Assembly (NCBI GenBank): GCA_016192145.1
Contig: JACPUT010000018.1
Coordinates: forward strand, 62,001-126,000
Origin: Acidobacteriota bacterium
GTDB lineage: Bacteria; Acidobacteriota; Holophagae; Holophagales; Holophagaceae
Direction: 5' to 3'
DNA length: 64,000 bases
Below, in pieces: positions 6,920 through 42,495 of this stretch. The translations under genes were made by a program, and so were the position numbers. The notes below the pieces were generated by a model. The model saw only the letters and a list, made by a program, of their open reading frames with translations. It did no database searches and was not told the origin of the DNA. Position 1 is the stretch's first letter. Every line of letters starts with the position of its first letter.

Positions 6920-6929
6920 GGCCAGGAGC

Positions 6930-8702
6930 GTGTCCAAGAAACCCATGGGAGCCGCGGGACTCGCGGATCGTTGGACGGCCCCCTTCGTCCACCGCGCCCT
7001 GCTCGGCCTCCTCGTCCTCGGGGCGGGCGTGGGCCTGCTCGGGGAACGGAACGTGATGAACTTCCTCCCCCGGGCCTCCTTCCATGAAGGGCGCTGGCTG
7101 GGGAGCCCCTGGTTCATCGGCGCCATGGCCCTGGCGGCGCTATCGGGCTGGTTCCAGGCGCTGCGGGATCCCGAGCCCCATTGGGCCCGCCGCTGCCTCC
7201 AGCTCGCGCCCCTGGTGCTGCTAGTGGGCCTGGTGACGAGCCGGCTGCTTGGGGTGCGGGTGCCGGTGGACCTGCGTGTGGGCGGCACCAGCGAACCCAT
7301 CCTGGCCGCGGGGGGACTGCGCCTGCGGCTGGAGGCCCTGAAAACGGATCCCCGGCCCCCGGCCTTCAAACTGGCGGCCTATACGCGGCCCGATGGGTTG
7401 GGTGGCTTTGAAGCGGAACCCCGTTCCCTATCTGAAAAGGCGGGCATCGAAGGCCGGATCCCGGGAACCGCGCTGCGCTATCAGGTCGAGTCGATCATCC
7501 CCCACGGCCTGCCCAACGGCGCCATGGTGGATGACCCCGCGAGCTCCGAGAACCCCGCGTTGCACGTGTTGCTGGGCCTGAGCCAGCCCAATCCCCTGGA
7601 GGGCTTCCTCCTGGCGCGGGATCCGCGCCGAGCCCGCTTCGATGAACCCGGGGGCCGCTTCGCCGTGGTGTTCCAGGAGCGCTTCGATGGCGCCACCCTC
7701 GCGGCCTTGAAGGCCAAGCCGCCCGCCCGGGAACAGCTCGTGCTCACGGTGCAGGGCAGCTCCATCGCGCACGAGGCCCGCGTGGGCAGCACCTGGCAGC
7801 TGCCTTCCTTCAGCTTGGAGGTGGAGGCCCTCTATCCGGATTTCGTGGCCAAGCCCGGAGCCGATCGGCAGCCCCGCTTCGGCACCCGCTCCGCCGCGCC
7901 CCTGAATCCCTGGGTGCAGGTGCGGCTGCGCCAGCCGGGCGGCGCCAGCGCCTTGCTGATGCTGGCGGCCCACCCGCCGGCGGATCCCTCCTACGCGGGG
8001 TACCTGCGGGAGGTCCTGCCCCCGGGCGTGGAGCTGCGCTACGTGCGGGAGGGCGAGGATCCCGTGGATCGCTTCGTGCTCTTCACCCTCGCCGACGCCC
8101 GGGTGCGCCTCGTGGTGGGCGGGAAGGTGCTCCGCGAGGCGCCCCTGGAATTCCGCAAGCCCTTCACGGTGGCCCCGGGGCTCAGCGCCACGCCCCTGGA
8201 GGTCTTCCCCCGGGCCCGCTTCGAGGAGGACTGGCAGCCCCATCCGGATCCCGTGCAGGCCACCCGCTATGAGAACCCCGTGGCGAAGGTGAAGGTCTCG
8301 GACCTCGCGAAGGGCACGACGGAGACCCACTGGCTGGCCGCGCGGGGGCCCCAGGGCCCAAGGCCCGTGGCCTACCGGGGCGGGGCCCTGGCCCTGCTCT
8401 TCAAGAAGCGCGAACCCGAGCCGGAGCAGGTGCACGCCACCCTCAGCCTCGTGGATGCGGCGGGCGAAACCCGCGCCCAGGGCGCGGTGGACGTGGGCGA
8501 ACCGCTCCGCCCCTCGCCGATGGGCCTCCTCTCCGTGCGTGCGGACTGGGAGACCTCCAATGATCCCGCCGCCTTCCGGGCGCTGGTGGTGCGCGATCCC
8601 GGGCGGCCGATCCTCCTGTTCGGCCTGATGCAGCTCGGGCTCGGCCTGGTGGGCCTGCTCTTCCGCCGTACGGGCCAGTCCAATTGGGTCCAACGGCGCT
8701 AA
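6930..8702 (+). CDS. ResB-like membrane protein
   Basis: A 590-residue protein that starts at GTG with AGGAG just upstream and only 10 bp after the ispH-ubiA stop, so it is probably in the same operon. Three N-terminal membrane helices, a periplasmic region of about 420 residues and a final membrane helix introduced by RDPGRPILLFGL match the ResB/Ccs1 layout, where a D-P-G-x3-x-x-x-G signature precedes the last helix. ResB works with ResA/ResC in cytochrome c haem attachment. Overall similarity is limited and no ResC/CcsA is adjacent, so a role in cytochrome maturation is a family-level guess. Confidence 0.65.
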   Translation: MSKKPMGAAGLADRWTAPFVHRALLGLLVLGAGVGLLGERNVMNFLPRASFHEGRWLGSPWFIGAMALAALSGWFQALRDPEPHWARRCLQLAPLVLLVGLVTSRLLGVRVPVDLRVGGTSEPILAAGGLRLRLEALKTDPRPPAFKLAAYTRPDGLGGFEAEPRSLSEKAGIEGRIPGTALRYQVESIIPHGLPNGAMVDDPASSENPALHVLLGLSQPNPLEGFLLARDPRRARFDEPGGRFAVVFQERFDGATLAALKAKPPAREQLVLTVQGSSIAHEARVGSTWQLPSFSLEVEALYPDFVAKPGADRQPRFGTRSAAPLNPWVQVRLRQPGGASALLMLAAHPPADPSYAGYLREVLPPGVELRYVREGEDPVDRFVLFTLADARVRLVVGGKVLREAPLEFRKPFTVAPGLSATPLEVFPRARFEEDWQPHPDPVQATRYENPVAKVKVSDLAKGTTETHWLAARGPQGPRPVAYRGGALALLFKKREPEPEQVHATLSLVDAAGETRAQGAVDVGEPLRPSPMGLLSVRADWETSNDPAAFRALVVRDPGRPILLFGLMQLGLGLVGLLFRRTGQSNWVQRR

Positions 8703-35765: not shown

Positions 35766-36302
35766 TCATTTCGCCCGCACCACGCTGATTTGGGCGGAGC
35801 CTCCGGCGCGCGCCGATTTCGAGGAGGCCGTGATGGGCCCGATGATGCCGCGCAGGTTCTTGTTGACCAGCAGCTCATGCCCCGTGCCCTCGCCGATGGC
35901 GAAGGCGGCGCCGTTGTCGAGGGCGCGGGCCTGGGTGCCGACCACGGGGATCCGTCCATCCAACTGCATGACGGCAAAGGTGGCATGGGGTGCTCCATCC
36001 TTGACCAGTCGATCTTTCGGCAGGAGCACCATCAGTTCCGTGCCGGTTCGGCTGAGCACATGGGCGGCGGCACCGACCTGATCTCGGGATTTGATGTCCA
36101 CCACCGTGATGTGGCCGGAGCCCATGGCCTCCGCCAGCCTTTGCACATCGGCCCGGCTGAAGCCGTAGTCGCAGATCACGCCGTAGTGGACCTTATCGGG
36201 AAAGGAGGCCCGAGTGGCTTGGGCGAGGTCGGAGAAGGGATTGGGGGTCTGGGCGGCCAGGGGAGCGCCGACGACGAGAAGGGAGAGAAGCATGGAGCGC
36301 AT
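35766..36302 (-). CDS. Secreted protein of unknown function
   Basis: A 178-residue protein with a clear signal peptide (MRSMLLSLLVVGAPLAAQ). The mature part starts TPNPFSDLAQ and has a Rossmann-like alternation (YGVICDYGFSRADVQRLAEAM, ITVVDIKSRDQVGAAAHVL, ELMVLLPKDRLVKDG). It resembles the core of periplasmic ABC-binding or YfiR-like proteins, but I cannot assign it. It ends 3 bp from the polA stop, tail to tail. Confidence 0.65.
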   Translation of the reverse strand: MRSMLLSLLVVGAPLAAQTPNPFSDLAQATRASFPDKVHYGVICDYGFSRADVQRLAEAMGSGHITVVDIKSRDQVGAAAHVLSRTGTELMVLLPKDRLVKDGAPHATFAVMQLDGRIPVVGTQARALDNGAAFAIGEGTGHELLVNKNLRGIIGPITASSKSARAGGSAQISVVRAK

Positions 36303-36375
36303 GGGCGCCTCCTGAGATGAAGCCGGGTCGGACTTCCCCTGCCGCCGAAGGGCGGCCCGGACGAGTCAAGGATGC

Positions 36376-36644
36376 GGAGAGTGTCTATGCAATCCGGAGG
36401 CGCCGAGCTGGGGTGGCAGCCGAGAGCTCCTAGGCGCCCGAACGAAGGTGGTGTGGTTCACCACTTAGAGAGGGCAACGAAGGAGCTCGACGGCTGCCGC
36501 CCCAGCCCGGAGGGTTGAGCGAAAAGGGGCTTGATCCAGCGTCGGGCTGCTTGCACGATGAACCCGCATCGCGCCGCGCAGCCCTTCTTGGCTGAAGCCC
36601 CTTTTCGCTCAACTCGGCGCCTCCGGATTGCATAGACACTCTCC
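36376..36644. ncRNA. Nested inverted-repeat element (structured RNA or MITE-like)
   Basis: 269 nt with a perfect 32-bp outer stem (36376-36407 with 36613-36644). Inside lie two independent long hairpins. Arm A pairs 36408-36422 with 36491-36505 (15 bp, one G-U in RNA), extended by GAGCTCCT/AGGAGCTC and capped by GTGGTG-TGGTT-CACCAC. Arm B pairs 36514-36532 with 36595-36613 (19 bp perfect), extended by GGGCTGC/GCAGCCC and CGATG/CATCG. It folds on either strand into a three-way junction covering almost every base. No target-site duplication is visible at its ends. It could be a miniature mobile element, a non-coding RNA or a transcription block; I cannot match it to a known RNA family. Confidence 0.7.
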
Positions 36645-36652
36645 TAGGGCGC

Positions 36653-36841
36653 GTGGCCCGTGGCAGCGGATCCCAAGGCGAAGGAGCGATGGGGGGTGTG
36701 TTGGGATGGAACTGTAGGTAGCCCGCAAGGGGCAGCCATGAAACCGGGGTCAATTCCCCGGAACGGGGGCGGAAACGCGCGGGAGCGTGGGGAACAGGAA
36801 TCCGTGACGGAGCCAGGCTTCGCGAGGGGCCTTTAGCCTGG
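36653..36841 (+). ncRNA. Putative structured leader of purD
   Basis: A hairpin-rich stretch: ATCCCAA (36670-36676) with TTGGGAT (36701-36707); a GNRA-type hairpin CCC-GCAA-GGG at 36722-36731; CCGGGG-TCAATT-CCCCGG at 36744-36761; TCCG-TGA-CGGA near 36801; and CCAGGCT (36813-36819) with AGCCTGG (36835-36841), the last ending 14 bp before the purD ribosome site. The layout suits a cis-regulatory RNA. I could not match it to the purine, PRPP, ZTP, glycine, cobalamin or TPP riboswitch signatures I know. Confidence 0.4.
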
Positions 36842-36865
36842 GATACTGGATGATTGGAGGGGATG

Positions 36866-38176
36866 ATGAGCGTTAAGGTCCTGCTGGTGGGCTCGGGTGG
36901 TCGCGAACATGCCATGGCGCGGAAGCTCGTGGGCGGATCCAACGCCGTCACGCTGTTCGCGGCGCCCGGCAGCGATGCCCTTGCGGAGTTGGGCACCTGC
37001 CTCCCCTTCCAGGGTGAGGACGTGGCGGGGATTGCGGCCTGGGCTGCGGAGCAGAAGCCAGACCTCGTGATCGTGGGCCCTGAGGCGCCGCTGGTGGCGG
37101 GGCTCTCTGATGCGCTTACCGCCCTGGGCATCCCCGTCTTCGGCCACCCCAAGGCCACGGCCGAGCTGGAGGGCTCCAAGGCCTTCGCCAAGGCCTTCAT
37201 GGAACGCCACGGCATTCCCTGTGCTGCATCACACACGGTGACGTCCTTCGAAGCGGGCGCGGCCCTCATCGAGGCGTGGCCTCACAAGTACCCGGTGGTG
37301 CTCAAGGCCGATGGCCTCGCCGCGGGCAAGGGCGTGGTGCTCGCCGCCGACAAGGCTGAAGCCCTCGCCACCCTGCGCGCCTTCATGGACGGCCAATTCG
37401 GCGAGGCATCGAAGACCGTGGTGCTGGAGCAGGCCCTCTTCGGCATGGAGCTGAGCCAGCATGCGCTGGTGGATGTCACCCCCGATCACGCCCGCTTCGT
37501 GATGCTGCCCGCCTGCCAGGATCACAAGCGAATCTTCGAAGGCGATCAGGGCCCCAACACCGGCGGCATGGGCGCCTTCGGGCCGTTGCCCTTCCTGCGC
37601 CCCGAGGATGTCGAGCGCATCCGCAAGGAGCTGGTGGAGCCCACCGTGAAGGGCCTCCAGAAGGATGGCCTCGTGGGCCGCGGCGTCCTCTTCCTCGGCG
37701 TCATGTACGACGAGACGGGCCCCCAGCTGCTGGAGTACAACGTGCGCTTCGGCGATCCCGAAACCCAGGTGCTCATGGAGCTGCTGGATGAGGACCTGCT
37801 CCCGCTCTTGAAGGCCGTGGCCGAGCAAAAGCTGGATCGCACCGAAGTGAAGCTCAAGCCCGGCTGCGCCATCACCTTCGTGCTCGCCGCCGAAGGCTAT
37901 CCGGAATCGGCCAAGAAGGGTGTGCCCATCACGATCCAGGATTCCAGCCTCACCCTGATCCACGCCGGCACCAGGAAGGTGGATGGCACCTGGACCACGA
38001 ATGGCGGGCGCGTCATGAACCTCGTCACTGTGGCGCCCGACCTCGCCGCCGCCCGCGCCAAGGTGCTGGCGGAAGCCGGTACGGCGGATTGGCCGGGAAG
38101 GCAGTTGCGCGAGGACATCGGATTGCGGGCCCTGAACCACGCACGGGCCGGAAAGACGGTGATGGATCCCTGGTAG
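36866..38176 (+). CDS. purD: Phosphoribosylamine-glycine ligase
   Basis: A 436-residue GAR synthetase, step two of purine synthesis: ATP + glycine + phosphoribosylamine to GAR. N-domain VLLVGSGGREHA, ATP-grasp domain with KADGLAAGKGVV, QDHKRIFEGDQGPNTGGMGAFGP and the metal-binding LEYNVRFGDPETQ. Length matches the family (about 430). ATG 36866 has GGAGG at a good distance; an ATG three bases upstream and a TTG at 36854 are alternatives. No other pur gene is adjacent. Confidence 0.96.
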   Translation: MSVKVLLVGSGGREHAMARKLVGGSNAVTLFAAPGSDALAELGTCLPFQGEDVAGIAAWAAEQKPDLVIVGPEAPLVAGLSDALTALGIPVFGHPKATAELEGSKAFAKAFMERHGIPCAASHTVTSFEAGAALIEAWPHKYPVVLKADGLAAGKGVVLAADKAEALATLRAFMDGQFGEASKTVVLEQALFGMELSQHALVDVTPDHARFVMLPACQDHKRIFEGDQGPNTGGMGAFGPLPFLRPEDVERIRKELVEPTVKGLQKDGLVGRGVLFLGVMYDETGPQLLEYNVRFGDPETQVLMELLDEDLLPLLKAVAEQKLDRTEVKLKPGCAITFVLAAEGYPESAKKGVPITIQDSSLTLIHAGTRKVDGTWTTNGGRVMNLVTVAPDLAAARAKVLAEAGTADWPGRQLREDIGLRALNHARAGKTVMDPW

Positions 38177-39121: not shown

Positions 39122-41821
39122 CTACTCTCCGCGCAGCACCGCCAGGGGCTCCGCCCGTAGGGCCCGCCAGCTACCGAGGAACCCCACCACCAGGGTGAGC
39201 AGGGCCGCCAGGCCGAGCAATTGGAGGGCGAGCCAGGGGCTGGGCTCCGACGGGAGGTCGAGCACCTTGCGGGCGTAGAGCCAGCTGCCGATCCAGGCCA
39301 GCGTGCCCGCCGTGAGCGCGGCGGCGCCACCCAGCAGGCTGAACTCCCAGGCTAGGCTCCGCAGCAGCAGGGGTTCGCCGGCGCCGAGGGTGCGGAGCAG
39401 GGCCACGTCGCGCTGGCGACCCAGCCGGCTGGAGAGGAGGCTGGCGGAGAGCACGAGGAGGGCCGAGGCAAGCATGAGGGTGGCGAGGGCCGCCGCCACA
39501 AGGTTCACGAGATCCAGCACGCGGCCCACCTTGGCCCCCACCTCGGCGAGATCCACCACGATGACATTGGGCGTTTCCCGCGCCAGGGCGCTCTGCAGGG
39601 CCTGGCGCATGGGTGCATCGGGAGCCTCCAAGGCCGCGATGGTCAACGCGGGCGCGCCGCTGAGCAGGGAAGGGTGGGCGACGATGAAGAAGTTCGGCGC
39701 GAGGCTCTGCCAGTTCACCCGGCGCAGGCTGGTGACGGTGCCGCGCACCTCCTGGCCCTGCACGTCGAAGCGCAGCTCATCCCCGAGCCGGGCGCCGATC
39801 TCCTTGGCGAAGCCCTCCTCAAGGCTGAATTCCGCGTGGGGCTGGCCATCCTCGGCCCAGTAGCGGCCTGCGGTCAGGCGTTCGGCGGGGCCGAGCTTCG
39901 CGCGCCAGGTGAGGTTCTGTTCCCGGGTGCGGAACTGGGTTCCGCGGCTGGGCTCCTTGCCGTTGTCCCCCTTGGGCTGTTCGGCGGCCTCCTCCACCGG
40001 GCGCCCCGCCACGGCGCGCAACCGGGCCCGCACGAGGGGGGCCTCCCGCAGCTCGTGGCCCGTGATGCGCTTGGCCAGCGCGCGCACTTGCGCCACCTGC
40101 TTGGGCTGTACGTCCAGGAGGAACACGTTGGGGCGCCCATCCCCGGCCTTGGCCTGGAGGATGGGCGCCACCAGATCGGCCTTCACGAAGTGGGCGGCGA
40201 GGAGCAGGAAGAGGGCGAGGCCCATGACACTCATGACCAGGGTGGAAACCCCGGGCCGCGCGCCGAGCTGCCCGAAAGCCAGGCGCAGGCCCAAGGGCAT
40301 GCGCGCGGCGCTGCGCCGGAAGAAGCCCAGCTGCAGGCGCAGCAGCCCCGCGAGAGTGCCCAGGAGCACCGCCAAGACGATGAGGGTGCCGAGGCCCGCG
40401 CCGAGGGTGGGGGCGTTGCGGAGCACGAGGAAGGCGGCGAGGGCCGCGGCGCCGCCCCAGGCGAGGAGCGCGACGCGTCGGGGCACGGGTGGTTCGGCGC
40501 CATCCCGGAGCAGCGCCAGGGGCGCCGTGGCTCCCAGCCGGGCGAGGGCGGGAGCCACCATGAGGGCCAGCAGCGCCAGGGCCAGCAGGCTTTCGAGGAT
40601 GGGCGGCGCACCGGGCGCGGCGCCGCGCAAGGCGGCGGGGATCAGCTCCGCCAGGGCCCGGGGCATCCAGCGCGCGGCCAGCAATCCGAGCAGGGTGCCC
40701 AGGGCGCCACCCGCCAGGAGCAGGCCCGCGGTCAGGAGACCGAAGGACCGGTGCGCCAACTCCGGCGGCGCGCCCAGGCAGCGGAGAATGGCGGCGTCGC
40801 GGCGGCGGCCGTCCAGGAAGGCCGCAAGGATGGCCCAGGAACCCAGCAGCGCGAGCAGCAGCGTGAGCAGGCCCAGTTGCCGGATGAAGCGGTTGAGGTT
40901 GCGCAGGGGCTGCGCCAGCTGGGCGGCGGCCTCTTCGTGGGATTGGATGCGGGCCTTGGCTTCCCCCGAAGGGCGCGGACGCCCTTCGGGATTAGCGGCG
41001 GCCTCTTCGTGGGATTGGATGCGGGCCTTGGCTTCCCCCGAAGGGCGCGGACGCCCTTCGGGATTAATGGACACGCTGCGGGCGAGGGCCTTCAGGCGGG
41101 GCAGGGCCTCCCCTTCGGTGCCGGGGCGGAGGTTGAGCAGCAGGCGCGAGCTGAGGCGGGCCCGGGCGGTGACGAGGCCCAGGTCCCGGGCCAGCGGAAG
41201 CCCCAGGTAGATGCGGGGGCCCAGGGCGAAGGCGCTGGCCTGGCGGGCGTCATCCTGCTCCACGATGCCGGCGACGGGCACCACCCGCCCACCCAGGCGC
41301 AGGGCCTGGCCTCGGGCGAGCAGCTCGGCTTCCACCGCGCCCTCGGGGGCCACGGCCAATCCCCAGGCCTGGGCCAGGGCCCCTTCCACCACCACGCCCC
41401 GGGCGAGGGCTGCGGCCAGGGTGGATCCGCCCTGCAAAACCACGCGGCCCTGCAGCGGGTAGGCCCCTTCCACGGCGCGGACTTCCAGGAGGCGGGCCTT
41501 CTCCGTGGCGCCCTCCCCCGTGGCGCCCAGCGTGGGGAAGTCCACCACCTGGGCCAGGCCTGCGATGGCGGGATCCGACTGGATGCGTTCCTGCAGCGCC
41601 TGGGGCATGAGGCCCTGCACGCTCACGGAGGCGTCGGCGCCCAGCAGACCCCGGCTCTCGGCCTGCACGGCGTTGAGGACGCGGGAGGAGAAGCCGTAGG
41701 TGGCGGCGAAGGCGGCGAAGCCCACGGCGAGGCAGAGCACCACCATGAGGAGGCGGCCCTTTTGGCGCGCGGCCTCGCGGGCCGCCATGAGGGCCGCGTA
41801 GGACCAGGTTCCCGCCCTCAT
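39122..41821 (-). CDS. FtsX-family ABC transporter permease (YbbP-like)
   Basis: An 899-residue permease with an N-terminal helix, a periplasmic domain, FtsX-type four-helix cores and ten or so membrane helices. The arrangement and the neighbours (ATPase overlapping by 4 bp, TesA-like esterase divergent) match the Escherichia coli ybbP-ybbA-tesA locus. Probably moves or releases lipids or lipoproteins rather than importing solutes. Odd feature: residues near 255-302 are a 24-residue block repeated exactly twice (NPEGRPRPSGEAKARIQSHE and EAAA), from a 72-bp tandem DNA duplication that stays in frame. Confidence 0.88.
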   Translation of the reverse strand: MRAGTWSYAALMAAREAARQKGRLLMVVLCLAVGFAAFAATYGFSSRVLNAVQAESRGLLGADASVSVQGLMPQALQERIQSDPAIAGLAQVVDFPTLGATGEGATEKARLLEVRAVEGAYPLQGRVVLQGGSTLAAALARGVVVEGALAQAWGLAVAPEGAVEAELLARGQALRLGGRVVPVAGIVEQDDARQASAFALGPRIYLGLPLARDLGLVTARARLSSRLLLNLRPGTEGEALPRLKALARSVSINPEGRPRPSGEAKARIQSHEEAAANPEGRPRPSGEAKARIQSHEEAAAQLAQPLRNLNRFIRQLGLLTLLLALLGSWAILAAFLDGRRRDAAILRCLGAPPELAHRSFGLLTAGLLLAGGALGTLLGLLAARWMPRALAELIPAALRGAAPGAPPILESLLALALLALMVAPALARLGATAPLALLRDGAEPPVPRRVALLAWGGAAALAAFLVLRNAPTLGAGLGTLIVLAVLLGTLAGLLRLQLGFFRRSAARMPLGLRLAFGQLGARPGVSTLVMSVMGLALFLLLAAHFVKADLVAPILQAKAGDGRPNVFLLDVQPKQVAQVRALAKRITGHELREAPLVRARLRAVAGRPVEEAAEQPKGDNGKEPSRGTQFRTREQNLTWRAKLGPAERLTAGRYWAEDGQPHAEFSLEEGFAKEIGARLGDELRFDVQGQEVRGTVTSLRRVNWQSLAPNFFIVAHPSLLSGAPALTIAALEAPDAPMRQALQSALARETPNVIVVDLAEVGAKVGRVLDLVNLVAAALATLMLASALLVLSASLLSSRLGRQRDVALLRTLGAGEPLLLRSLAWEFSLLGGAAALTAGTLAWIGSWLYARKVLDLPSEPSPWLALQLLGLAALLTLVVGFLGSWRALRAEPLAVLRGE
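40923..41066. repeat. Exact 72-bp tandem duplication inside the permease gene
   Basis: Bases 40923-40994 and 40995-41066 are identical. Each copy contains a perfect 11-bp palindrome (CCCGAAGGGCG-CGGA-CGCCCTTCGGG at 40965-40990 in the first copy), a REP-like hairpin. The unit is a multiple of three, so the frame is kept. Confidence 0.97.
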
Positions 41822-42495
41822 GCGAGGCCCCCGGTGGACGCGATGCGCCCCCGCTCCAGCACCACGCGGGCCTGGAGGCGGTCGGCGAGGTGGGGATCGT
41901 GGGTGACGAGCACGAGGGTGCTGCCCAGCTCCCGCTGCAACTCCAGCAGCAGCTCGAATACGCCATCGGCATTGCGGGGATCCAGGCTGCCCGTGGGTTC
42001 GTCGGCGAGGAGGATGGGCGGCCGCGCCACGATGGCCCGGGCGATGGCCACGCGCTGGCACTCACCGCCGCTGAGCTGGGCGGGGACATGTTCGAGCCGC
42101 CCTTCGAGCCCCACGCGGCGGAGCACCTCCCGGGCGCGCTCCAGGGGCCGGTCCACACCGGCGATCTCGGCGGCGATGGCTACGTTCTGGAGGGCGCTGA
42201 AGGGCTGCAGCAGGTGGAAGGCCTGGAAGACGAAGCCCAGGCGCCGGGCCCGGAAGGCGGCGCGGCCGCGCTCGTCCAATGCACCCAGATCCTGGCCATC
42301 CACCACCACGCGGCCCTCGGTGGTCCGCTCCAGACCCGCCATGAGGGCGAGCAGGGTGCTCTTGCCGCTGCCGCTGGGGCCCTGGATGGCCACGGCGCGG
42401 CCCGTGGGGAAGAGGAGGTCCACGGCATCCAGCACCGTGAGGCGTTCCCCGCCGGGAGCCTCGAAGACCTTGGTGACGTGGTCGAGCTGAATCAA
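41818..42495 (-). CDS. ABC transporter ATPase (YbbA/LolD-like)
   Basis: A 225-residue ATPase of the MacB/LolD type. Walker A reads GPSGSGKS, the signature LSGGECQRVAIARA (C for Q at one place), Walker B ILLADEPTGSLD, and the H-loop VTHDPH. It powers the permease encoded directly downstream (4-bp overlap). It is divergent from the TesA-like gene, the classic tesA-ybbA arrangement. Confidence 0.92.
   Translation of the reverse strand: MIQLDHVTKVFEAPGGERLTVLDAVDLLFPTGRAVAIQGPSGSGKSTLLALMAGLERTTEGRVVVDGQDLGALDERGRAAFRARRLGFVFQAFHLLQPFSALQNVAIAAEIAGVDRPLERAREVLRRVGLEGRLEHVPAQLSGGECQRVAIARAIVARPPILLADEPTGSLDPRNADGVFELLLELQRELGSTLVLVTHDPHLADRLQARVVLERGRIASTGGLA

What the first reader, a model, noticed from the sequence alone, without database searches (positions are those of the whole stretch)
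36376..36644. 269-nt three-way-junction element with a perfect 32-bp outer stem
Almost every base of this gene-free segment is in a helix: a perfect 32-bp outer stem, a 19-bp perfect inner hairpin and a 15-bp inner hairpin with one G-U, each with further internal stems. It is far too elaborate for a terminator. It may be a new structured RNA, a miniature transposon or a cruciform-forming DNA element. It has no visible target duplication and matches no RNA family I can recall.
Basis: seen in the sequence. Interest (0 to 1): 0.75.

Follow-up and report, generated by a model that had tools for sequence, protein, structure and literature searches.

The report
Folding mini-transposon with conserved branched shape
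The 269-base element is a miniature transposon that borrows the enzyme of IS1182-type insertion sequences, and unusually its whole interior is one branched hairpin shape that many copies in at least three bacterial phyla keep by paired mutations, which suggests that the folded shape itself does something.

Summary
In detail: a 31-32-bp perfect outer stem encloses two ~100-nt hairpin arms and a tiny central hairpin (z about -16). It is not single-copy. The genome holds 18 full-length copies, one one-arm copy and many ~57-bp stem-only versions. Relatives carry 98-99% identical copies at unrelated sites.

Empty sites of four copies in related genomes show insertion into the TA of CTAG/TTAR-type sites with TA duplicated. 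The 19-bp ends equal the terminal inverted repeats of IS1182-family insertion sequences (ISMno38-like). So it is a MITE. The window copy is a decayed relic; no intact IS1182 gene was found in this genome.

What is unusual is the fold. A covariance model from Holophagaceae copies finds full-length relatives across Acidobacteriota, in Planctomycetota and in one alphaproteobacterial MAG. In 22 copies, 74 of 87 pairs show two-sided changes, while internal-loop bases stay conserved. G.T and A.C mismatches are equally rare (48 v 39), arguing against an RNA read from one strand. Arms are sometimes deleted at their bases, as hairpin-forming DNA would be.

Best reading: a new MITE family whose strand-symmetric hairpin/cruciform is selected, probably as DNA; what recognises it is unknown. 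It is not IR-replacing like IS1272, nor a REP element, and has no Rfam match.

The parts
36374..36646 (+). whole element, including the positions of the flanking TA dinucleotides (left changed to GC, right TA)
   Evidence: covariance model R1 match, 254.9 bits on + and 114.4 bits on -
36376..36406 (+). left terminal inverted repeat = left side of the outer stem
   Evidence: perfect pairing with 36614-36644; diverged form of the TIR GGAGCSTGTCCAMGTAA
36407..36506 (+). arm A: hairpin with conserved internal loops (family consensus CAAGGA ... GACGC)
36507..36513 (+). mini-hairpin CCGGAGG between the arms
36514..36613 (+). arm B: hairpin whose internal loops are the reverse-complement counterpart of arm A (GCGTC ... 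TCCTTG); basal stem 19 bp perfect
36614..36644 (+). right terminal inverted repeat = right side of the outer stem
36645..36646 (+). TA, the remaining copy of the presumed target duplication
   Evidence: by comparison with other copies and empty sites

Best explanation
A non-autonomous miniature transposon (MITE) family mobilised in trans by IS1182-family transposases. SHOWN: its ends equal the terminal inverted repeats of IS1182-type ISs; it inserts into a TA (mostly within CTAG) and duplicates it; it exists in many copies per genome, with recent spread in relatives. SHOWN: its interior is a conserved branched fold (outer TIR stem of about 32 bp, two arms of about 100 nt, a 3-bp central hairpin) kept by covariation, with conserved bases in the arms' internal loops, in several phyla. 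INFERRED: mobilisation by IS1182 itself (shared ends, no experiment). INFERRED, less sure: the fold is selected as a strand-symmetric DNA hairpin or cruciform, most likely as a platform that brings the two ends together or recruits the transposase or a host architectural protein during transposition; arm B is the inverted counterpart of arm A, so either strand presents the same motif. The window copy is an old, probably immobile relic between two divergent genes (a 178-aa ORF and purD). I put the MITE identity at about 0.93, selection on the folded form at about 0.8, and action as DNA rather than as RNA of both strands at about 0.6.
For: 18 full-length copies plus short versions in the genome. 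98-99% identical copies at different loci in G015 and G022. Empty sites with a single TA for L121, L128, L127 and L119. The same 19-bp ends bracket IS1182 transposase genes in L157, L175 and L210, and ISMno38 has the same ends. 74 of 87 pairs with two-sided changes; 92.6% of cells paired against 69.5% shuffled and 38-44% slid. Model matches outside the training set in Planctomycetota, an alphaproteobacterial MAG and other Acidobacteriota. 38 of 100 unpaired columns at least 80% conserved. G.T 48 v A.C 39. L129 lacks exactly arm A plus the mini-hairpin.
Against: The autonomous ISs and the ~57-bp versions have only the TIRs, so the arms are not required for transposition. G015 has five near-identical copies but no IS1182-family match, so its transposase was lost recently or another enzyme moves them. 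The parity test is not corrected for phylogeny, and the outer stem alone shows a mild excess of G.T (28 v 13). No transposition or binding experiment exists.
Confidence: 0.75

Rival explanations
1. An IS1182 MITE whose pairing has no function: long palindromes are repeatedly 'corrected' by template switching during replication, which copies a change in one arm into the other.
For: No strand bias of mismatches. In recent G015 copies one pair runs C-G, C.A, T-A (positions 38/125). Palindromes are known substrates for such correction (own knowledge).
Against: Internal-loop bases stay unpaired and conserved (38 of 100 columns), although correction should erase such loops. Arm lengths and the four-branch layout persist across phyla. 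Most changes between very recent copies are one-sided.
Confidence: 0.2
2. A structured RNA encoded by the mobile element that works when transcribed from either strand, for example as a bidirectional transcription barrier or mRNA 3'-end protector at stop codons.
For: Covarying helices with conserved loops. Dyad symmetry gives both transcripts the same motif. Element edges coincide with a TAG stop of an ORF of at least 200 codons in 26% of cases against 13% of control CTAG sites. MITE transcripts are often described as stable stem-loops (PMC10969869).
Against: No G.U preference on either strand. No Rfam family. The window copy lies between divergent genes, not at a gene end. No expression data available.
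Confidence: 0.22
3. A REP element: a head-to-head dimer of CGTC- or GTAG-tagged palindromes moved by RAYT (Y1) transposases.
For: Arms carry GCGTC/GACGC motifs facing each other; CGTC REPs are mostly head-to-head dimers and some lie inside a larger palindrome (PMC3733652).
Against: CGTC REP stems are 8-9 bp with 4-5-nt loops; these arms are about 100 nt with internal loops. Seven of 12 genomes searched, including this one, have no Y1 transposase match. The ends are IS1182 TIRs.
Confidence: 0.03
4. A MITE of IS630/Tc1-mariner type.
For: TA target within CTAG; IS630 copies abut the element in G022.
Against: The G022 IS630 ends are GTGTAGGCCGCCAGAA and no IS630 locus examined has the TIR, whereas IS1182 elements do. 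G000, G014, G015 and G028 have no DDE_3 match.
Confidence: 0.02

Closest known systems
ISMno38-like insertion sequences, IS1182 family
   Same: Terminal inverted repeats (CTAGGAGCCYGTCCGAGTAA in Methylobacterium, TAGGAGCCTGTCCAAGTAA in Holophagaceae) and CTAG at the edges
   Different: The ISs are 1.4-1.5 kb, encode a transposase and have no arms
IS1272 (IS1182 family) with proposed stem-loop-replacing transposition (PMC5678879)
   Same: Same transposase family; inverted-repeat structures are thought to matter
   Different: Here empty sites show simple TA duplication, no replaced stem-loop
Folding bacterial MITEs and palindromic repeats (ERIC, NEMIS, YPAL, QMITE2; PMC10969869, PMC3733652)
   Same: 70-300 bp, TIRs, no coding capacity, strong secondary structure, intergenic
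   Different: A specific branched fold with conserved internal loops, shared across phyla and shown by covariation; I found no such case in the papers searched
CGTC-tagged REP head-to-head dimers (PMC3733652)
   Same: Two inverted hairpins with CGTC motifs facing each other; some lie within a palindrome
   Different: Stems of 8-9 bp and no known transposase, against ~100-nt arms and IS1182 ends

Membership tests
MITE | Short, repeated, no coding gene | tested here: met
   18 full-length copies of about 270 nt; the only long ORF over it (36430-37269 minus) is a chance frame through purD
MITE | Terminal inverted repeats | tested here: met
   31-32 bp perfect here; conserved 19-nt ends in relatives
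MITE | Target duplication and empty sites | tested here: met
   TA, mostly in CTAG, in other copies and four empty sites; not visible in the window copy itself
MITE of IS1182 type | TIRs shared with an autonomous IS1182 element | tested here: met
   L157, L175, L210 and ISMno38
MITE of IS1182 type | Mobilised by that transposase | not testable with these tools
   needs an assay; the window's genome has no intact copy
IS1272-like IR-replacing element | Target stem-loop replaced, no target duplication | tested here: not met
   empty sites with TA duplication; flanks not palindromic overall, p 0.23
IS630/Tc1-mariner MITE | TIRs shared with an IS630 element | tested here: not met
REP (RAYT-associated) | 20-40-bp GTAG- or CGTC-tagged palindrome | tested here: not met
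   arms of 98-104 nt with internal loops; definition from PMC3733652
REP (RAYT-associated) | Y1 transposase in the genome | tested here: not met
   no PF01797 match in G000 and six other genomes of 12 searched, most of them shown to carry the element
Known Rfam RNA | Covariance-model match at the curated score | tested here: not met
Structured RNA read from one strand | G.U tolerated, A.C not | tested here: not met
   48 v 39; a ratio of 3:1 rejected at p 4.5e-5, not corrected for phylogeny
Structured RNA of either strand | Stable transcript | not testable with these tools
   no expression data

The most novel reading that the evidence does not exclude
A class of transposable elements in which the folded DNA itself, a strand-symmetric two-armed cruciform with sequence-specific internal loops, is the selected unit: recognised as hairpin or cruciform DNA by an IS1182-type transposase or a host protein, and kept across several phyla while the sequence of its stems turns over.
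Probability: 0.3. Interest if true: 0.85.

Novelty: new variant of a known kind. Interest (0 to 1): 0.62.

Why it matters
MITEs are usually seen as decayed transposon remnants with an unconstrained interior. Here the inside is the conserved part: a branched fold with covarying stems and conserved loops, shared by Acidobacteriota, Planctomycetota and an alphaproteobacterial MAG. That makes it testable whether bacterial DDE transposons use folded DNA as a substrate or regulator. The family model (R1) would also annotate many unlabelled repeats that could be mistaken for non-coding RNAs.

Tried and rejected
IS630/Tc1-mariner origin: suggested by the TA/CTAG target and by IS630 copies next to the element in G022, dropped because the ends differ. 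IS1272-like stem-loop replacement: dropped after the empty sites. Palindromic targets: only L099 sits in a long palindrome; overall p 0.23. REP/RAYT origin: dropped. Plasmid records: no DNA match to the element; one viral contig carries the TIR. Covariation inside the Planctomycetota alignment alone is uninformative because the copies are too similar (6 of 92 pairs). Direct pair counting in equal-length copies is noisy because of small indels; its 85-97% identity classes show parity of G.T and A.C, but its youngest class (26 v 6, non-independent pairs) and its oldest (24 v 48) deviate in opposite directions. The leader region before purD (36690-36862) has no unusual fold (z -0.41) and no clear relatives.

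Full report
OBSERVATION. The element at 36376-36644 is as described and far beyond chance as RNA (z -15.6) and as DNA (z -16.7). Folding without G-U gives outer stem 31, arm A 100, mini-hairpin 7, arm B 100, outer stem 31 nt. No Rfam family matches.

COPIES. A BLAST search of the same genome finds this copy and five others at 74-80% identity. A pattern for the ends gives 38 matches with up to 3 mismatches, many of them paired around 50-58-bp elements that consist of the outer stem only. A covariance model (R1; 273 positions, 87 pairs), built from 22 Holophagaceae copies, finds 18 full-length copies and one one-arm copy in the genome. Contig titles place relatives in Holophagaceae and Geothrix, so the window is most likely from a Holophagaceae genome (inference).

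MOBILITY. In G015 five 267-bp copies are 98-99% identical, and in G022 five 270-bp copies are about 99% identical, at different loci and in both orientations. Some element ends lie at contig ends (for example four in G035), as expected for repeats that break assemblies. The edges usually read C-TA|GGAG...CTCC|TA-G. Queries made from the joined flanks found empty sites in related genomes: L121 against G078 (99% over 300 bp without a gap), L128 against G068 and G060, L127 against G076, and L119 against G063. Each has one TA at the junction. The element therefore inserts at a TA, mostly within CTAG, and duplicates it. In some copies one side has since changed (for example TT in L121 and L128); the window copy has GC on the left. 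Other alignments were too diverged at the junction to be read.

PARTNER. A scan of genome contigs with the 19-nt end found three loci where it brackets one transposase gene: L157 (1541 bp, Holophagaceae), L210 (1478 bp, the genome called G072 here; its second end has two mismatches) and L175 (1424 bp, Caulobacter segnis). The L157 protein is an IS1182 transposase (NF033551, 382.9 bits against a cutoff of 270), and both L157 and L175 proteins carry DUF772 and DDE_Tnp_1 domains. The named relative ISMno38 has ends CTAGGAGCCCGTCCGAGTAA. The window's genome has only weak, broken IS1182-like traces, which fits old, immobile copies.

THE FOLD. In alignment A1 (22 copies, 68% mean column identity) the consensus structure has 87 pairs; 74 have two-sided changes, 92.6% of cells are paired (69.5% shuffled, 38-44% slid), and the covariation score is 0.578 against 0.171. 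The outer stem (about 32-34 nt), the arms (mostly 98-104 nt) and the mini-hairpin (7-11 nt) keep their lengths; some copies have extra hairpins inserted in an arm. R1 finds full-length matches outside its training set: one alphaproteobacterial MAG (6e-38), Planctomycetota (down to 3e-28) and, weakly, a one-arm element in a gammaproteobacterial MAG (2.5e-8), as well as several other families of Acidobacteriota; 23 of 119 genomes of the phylum have a match. Part of each score comes from the shared ends: stem-only versions score up to about 55 bits, while full-length matches outside Holophagaceae score 44-162 bits, so the weakest of these rest mainly on the ends.

WHAT IS CONSERVED. Over 87 elements, 38 of 100 unpaired columns are at least 80% conserved. 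By consensus arm A reads CAAGGA...GACGC and arm B GCGTC...TCCTTGC, that is, its reverse complement, so each strand presents the same motif once. Simple palindrome correction would not be expected to leave such loops.

DNA OR RNA. If one strand worked as RNA, G.U should be tolerated and A.C not. Single mismatches inside good stems are 48 G.T and 39 A.C (p 0.39; 3:1 rejected at p 4.5e-5); in the arms 20 and 26; in the outer stem alone 28 and 13. Both types are rare, so either DNA or both strands are under constraint. Copies have lost an arm at or near its base: L129 lacks exactly arm A plus the mini-hairpin, and L230 lacks nearly all of arm B, as expected if the hairpins form during replication (inference). 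The counts are of distinct local events but are not corrected for phylogeny.

CONTEXT. Element edges coincide with the TAG stop of an ORF of at least 200 codons in 26% of cases against 13% of control CTAG sites. CTAG is rebuilt at both edges after insertion, so a stop codon survives. ORFs were not curated, so this is suggestive only. The window copy lies between a 178-aa ORF on the minus strand (35766-36302) and purD on the plus strand.

MECHANISM. Shown: IS1182-type ends, insertion at TA, recent spread in relatives, and a fold kept by compensatory change. Inferred: the fold is read as DNA, perhaps to bring the ends together or to recruit the transposase or a host protein. Against a strict need: the autonomous ISs and the ~57-bp versions have no arms, so the fold can only be an enhancer, a regulator or a feature that makes insertions tolerable.

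KNOWN SYSTEMS. IS1272, another IS1182-family element, is proposed to replace stem-loops (PMC5678879); the empty sites here do not show that. REP elements and CGTC-tagged REPs (PMC3733652) share the idea of inverted hairpin pairs but fail on stem anatomy and transposase. No paper found in the searches made describes this family; the library is limited to open-licence papers, so absence there is weak evidence of novelty.

VERDICT. A MITE family of IS1182 type: a known kind, with a conserved, cross-phylum branched fold that I could not match to any described family.

Noticed in passing
window 6923-6941: A decayed, one-ended copy of the terminal repeat (CAGGAGCGTGTCCAAGAAA) continuing into CCCATGGGAGCC, the inner sequence of the 57-bp versions (L055).
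   Followed up: partly
window 40923-41066: A perfect 72-bp tandem duplication inside a long permease-like ORF (39122-42061 minus), in frame (24 codons); the unit contains a GC-rich palindrome and looks like a repeat captured in a protein.
   Followed up: no
window 36690-36862: G-rich leader region between the element and purD; no Rfam match, no unusual fold (z -0.41) and no clear relatives.
   Followed up: yes
L132 about 915-2786 (genome G022, 7 near-identical copies): A 1.87-kb IS630-type element with ends GTGTAGGCCGCCAGAA, a second ORF resembling a GxxExxY protein (from memory) and a 153-bp internal palindrome; some copies sit in the CTAG at the edge of the MITE.
   Followed up: partly
L099 and L107 flanks (genome G022): Another palindrome, TTATGACACAGTAGTGCTAGCACTACTGTGTCATAA, with CTAG at its centre; a target for the MITE, and a similar sequence lies beside an IS630 copy (L140).
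   Followed up: no
G015 (complete genome): Five 98-99% identical copies but no IS1182-family match: the transposase was lost recently or another enzyme moves the element.
   Followed up: partly
L345, L346, L348, L349, L352 (own genome): Subfamilies with other ends (GGGGCCTGTATGG..., CCAGGCTGTCCCGAAAC...) but the same arm geometry, suggesting co-evolution with different transposases.
   Followed up: no
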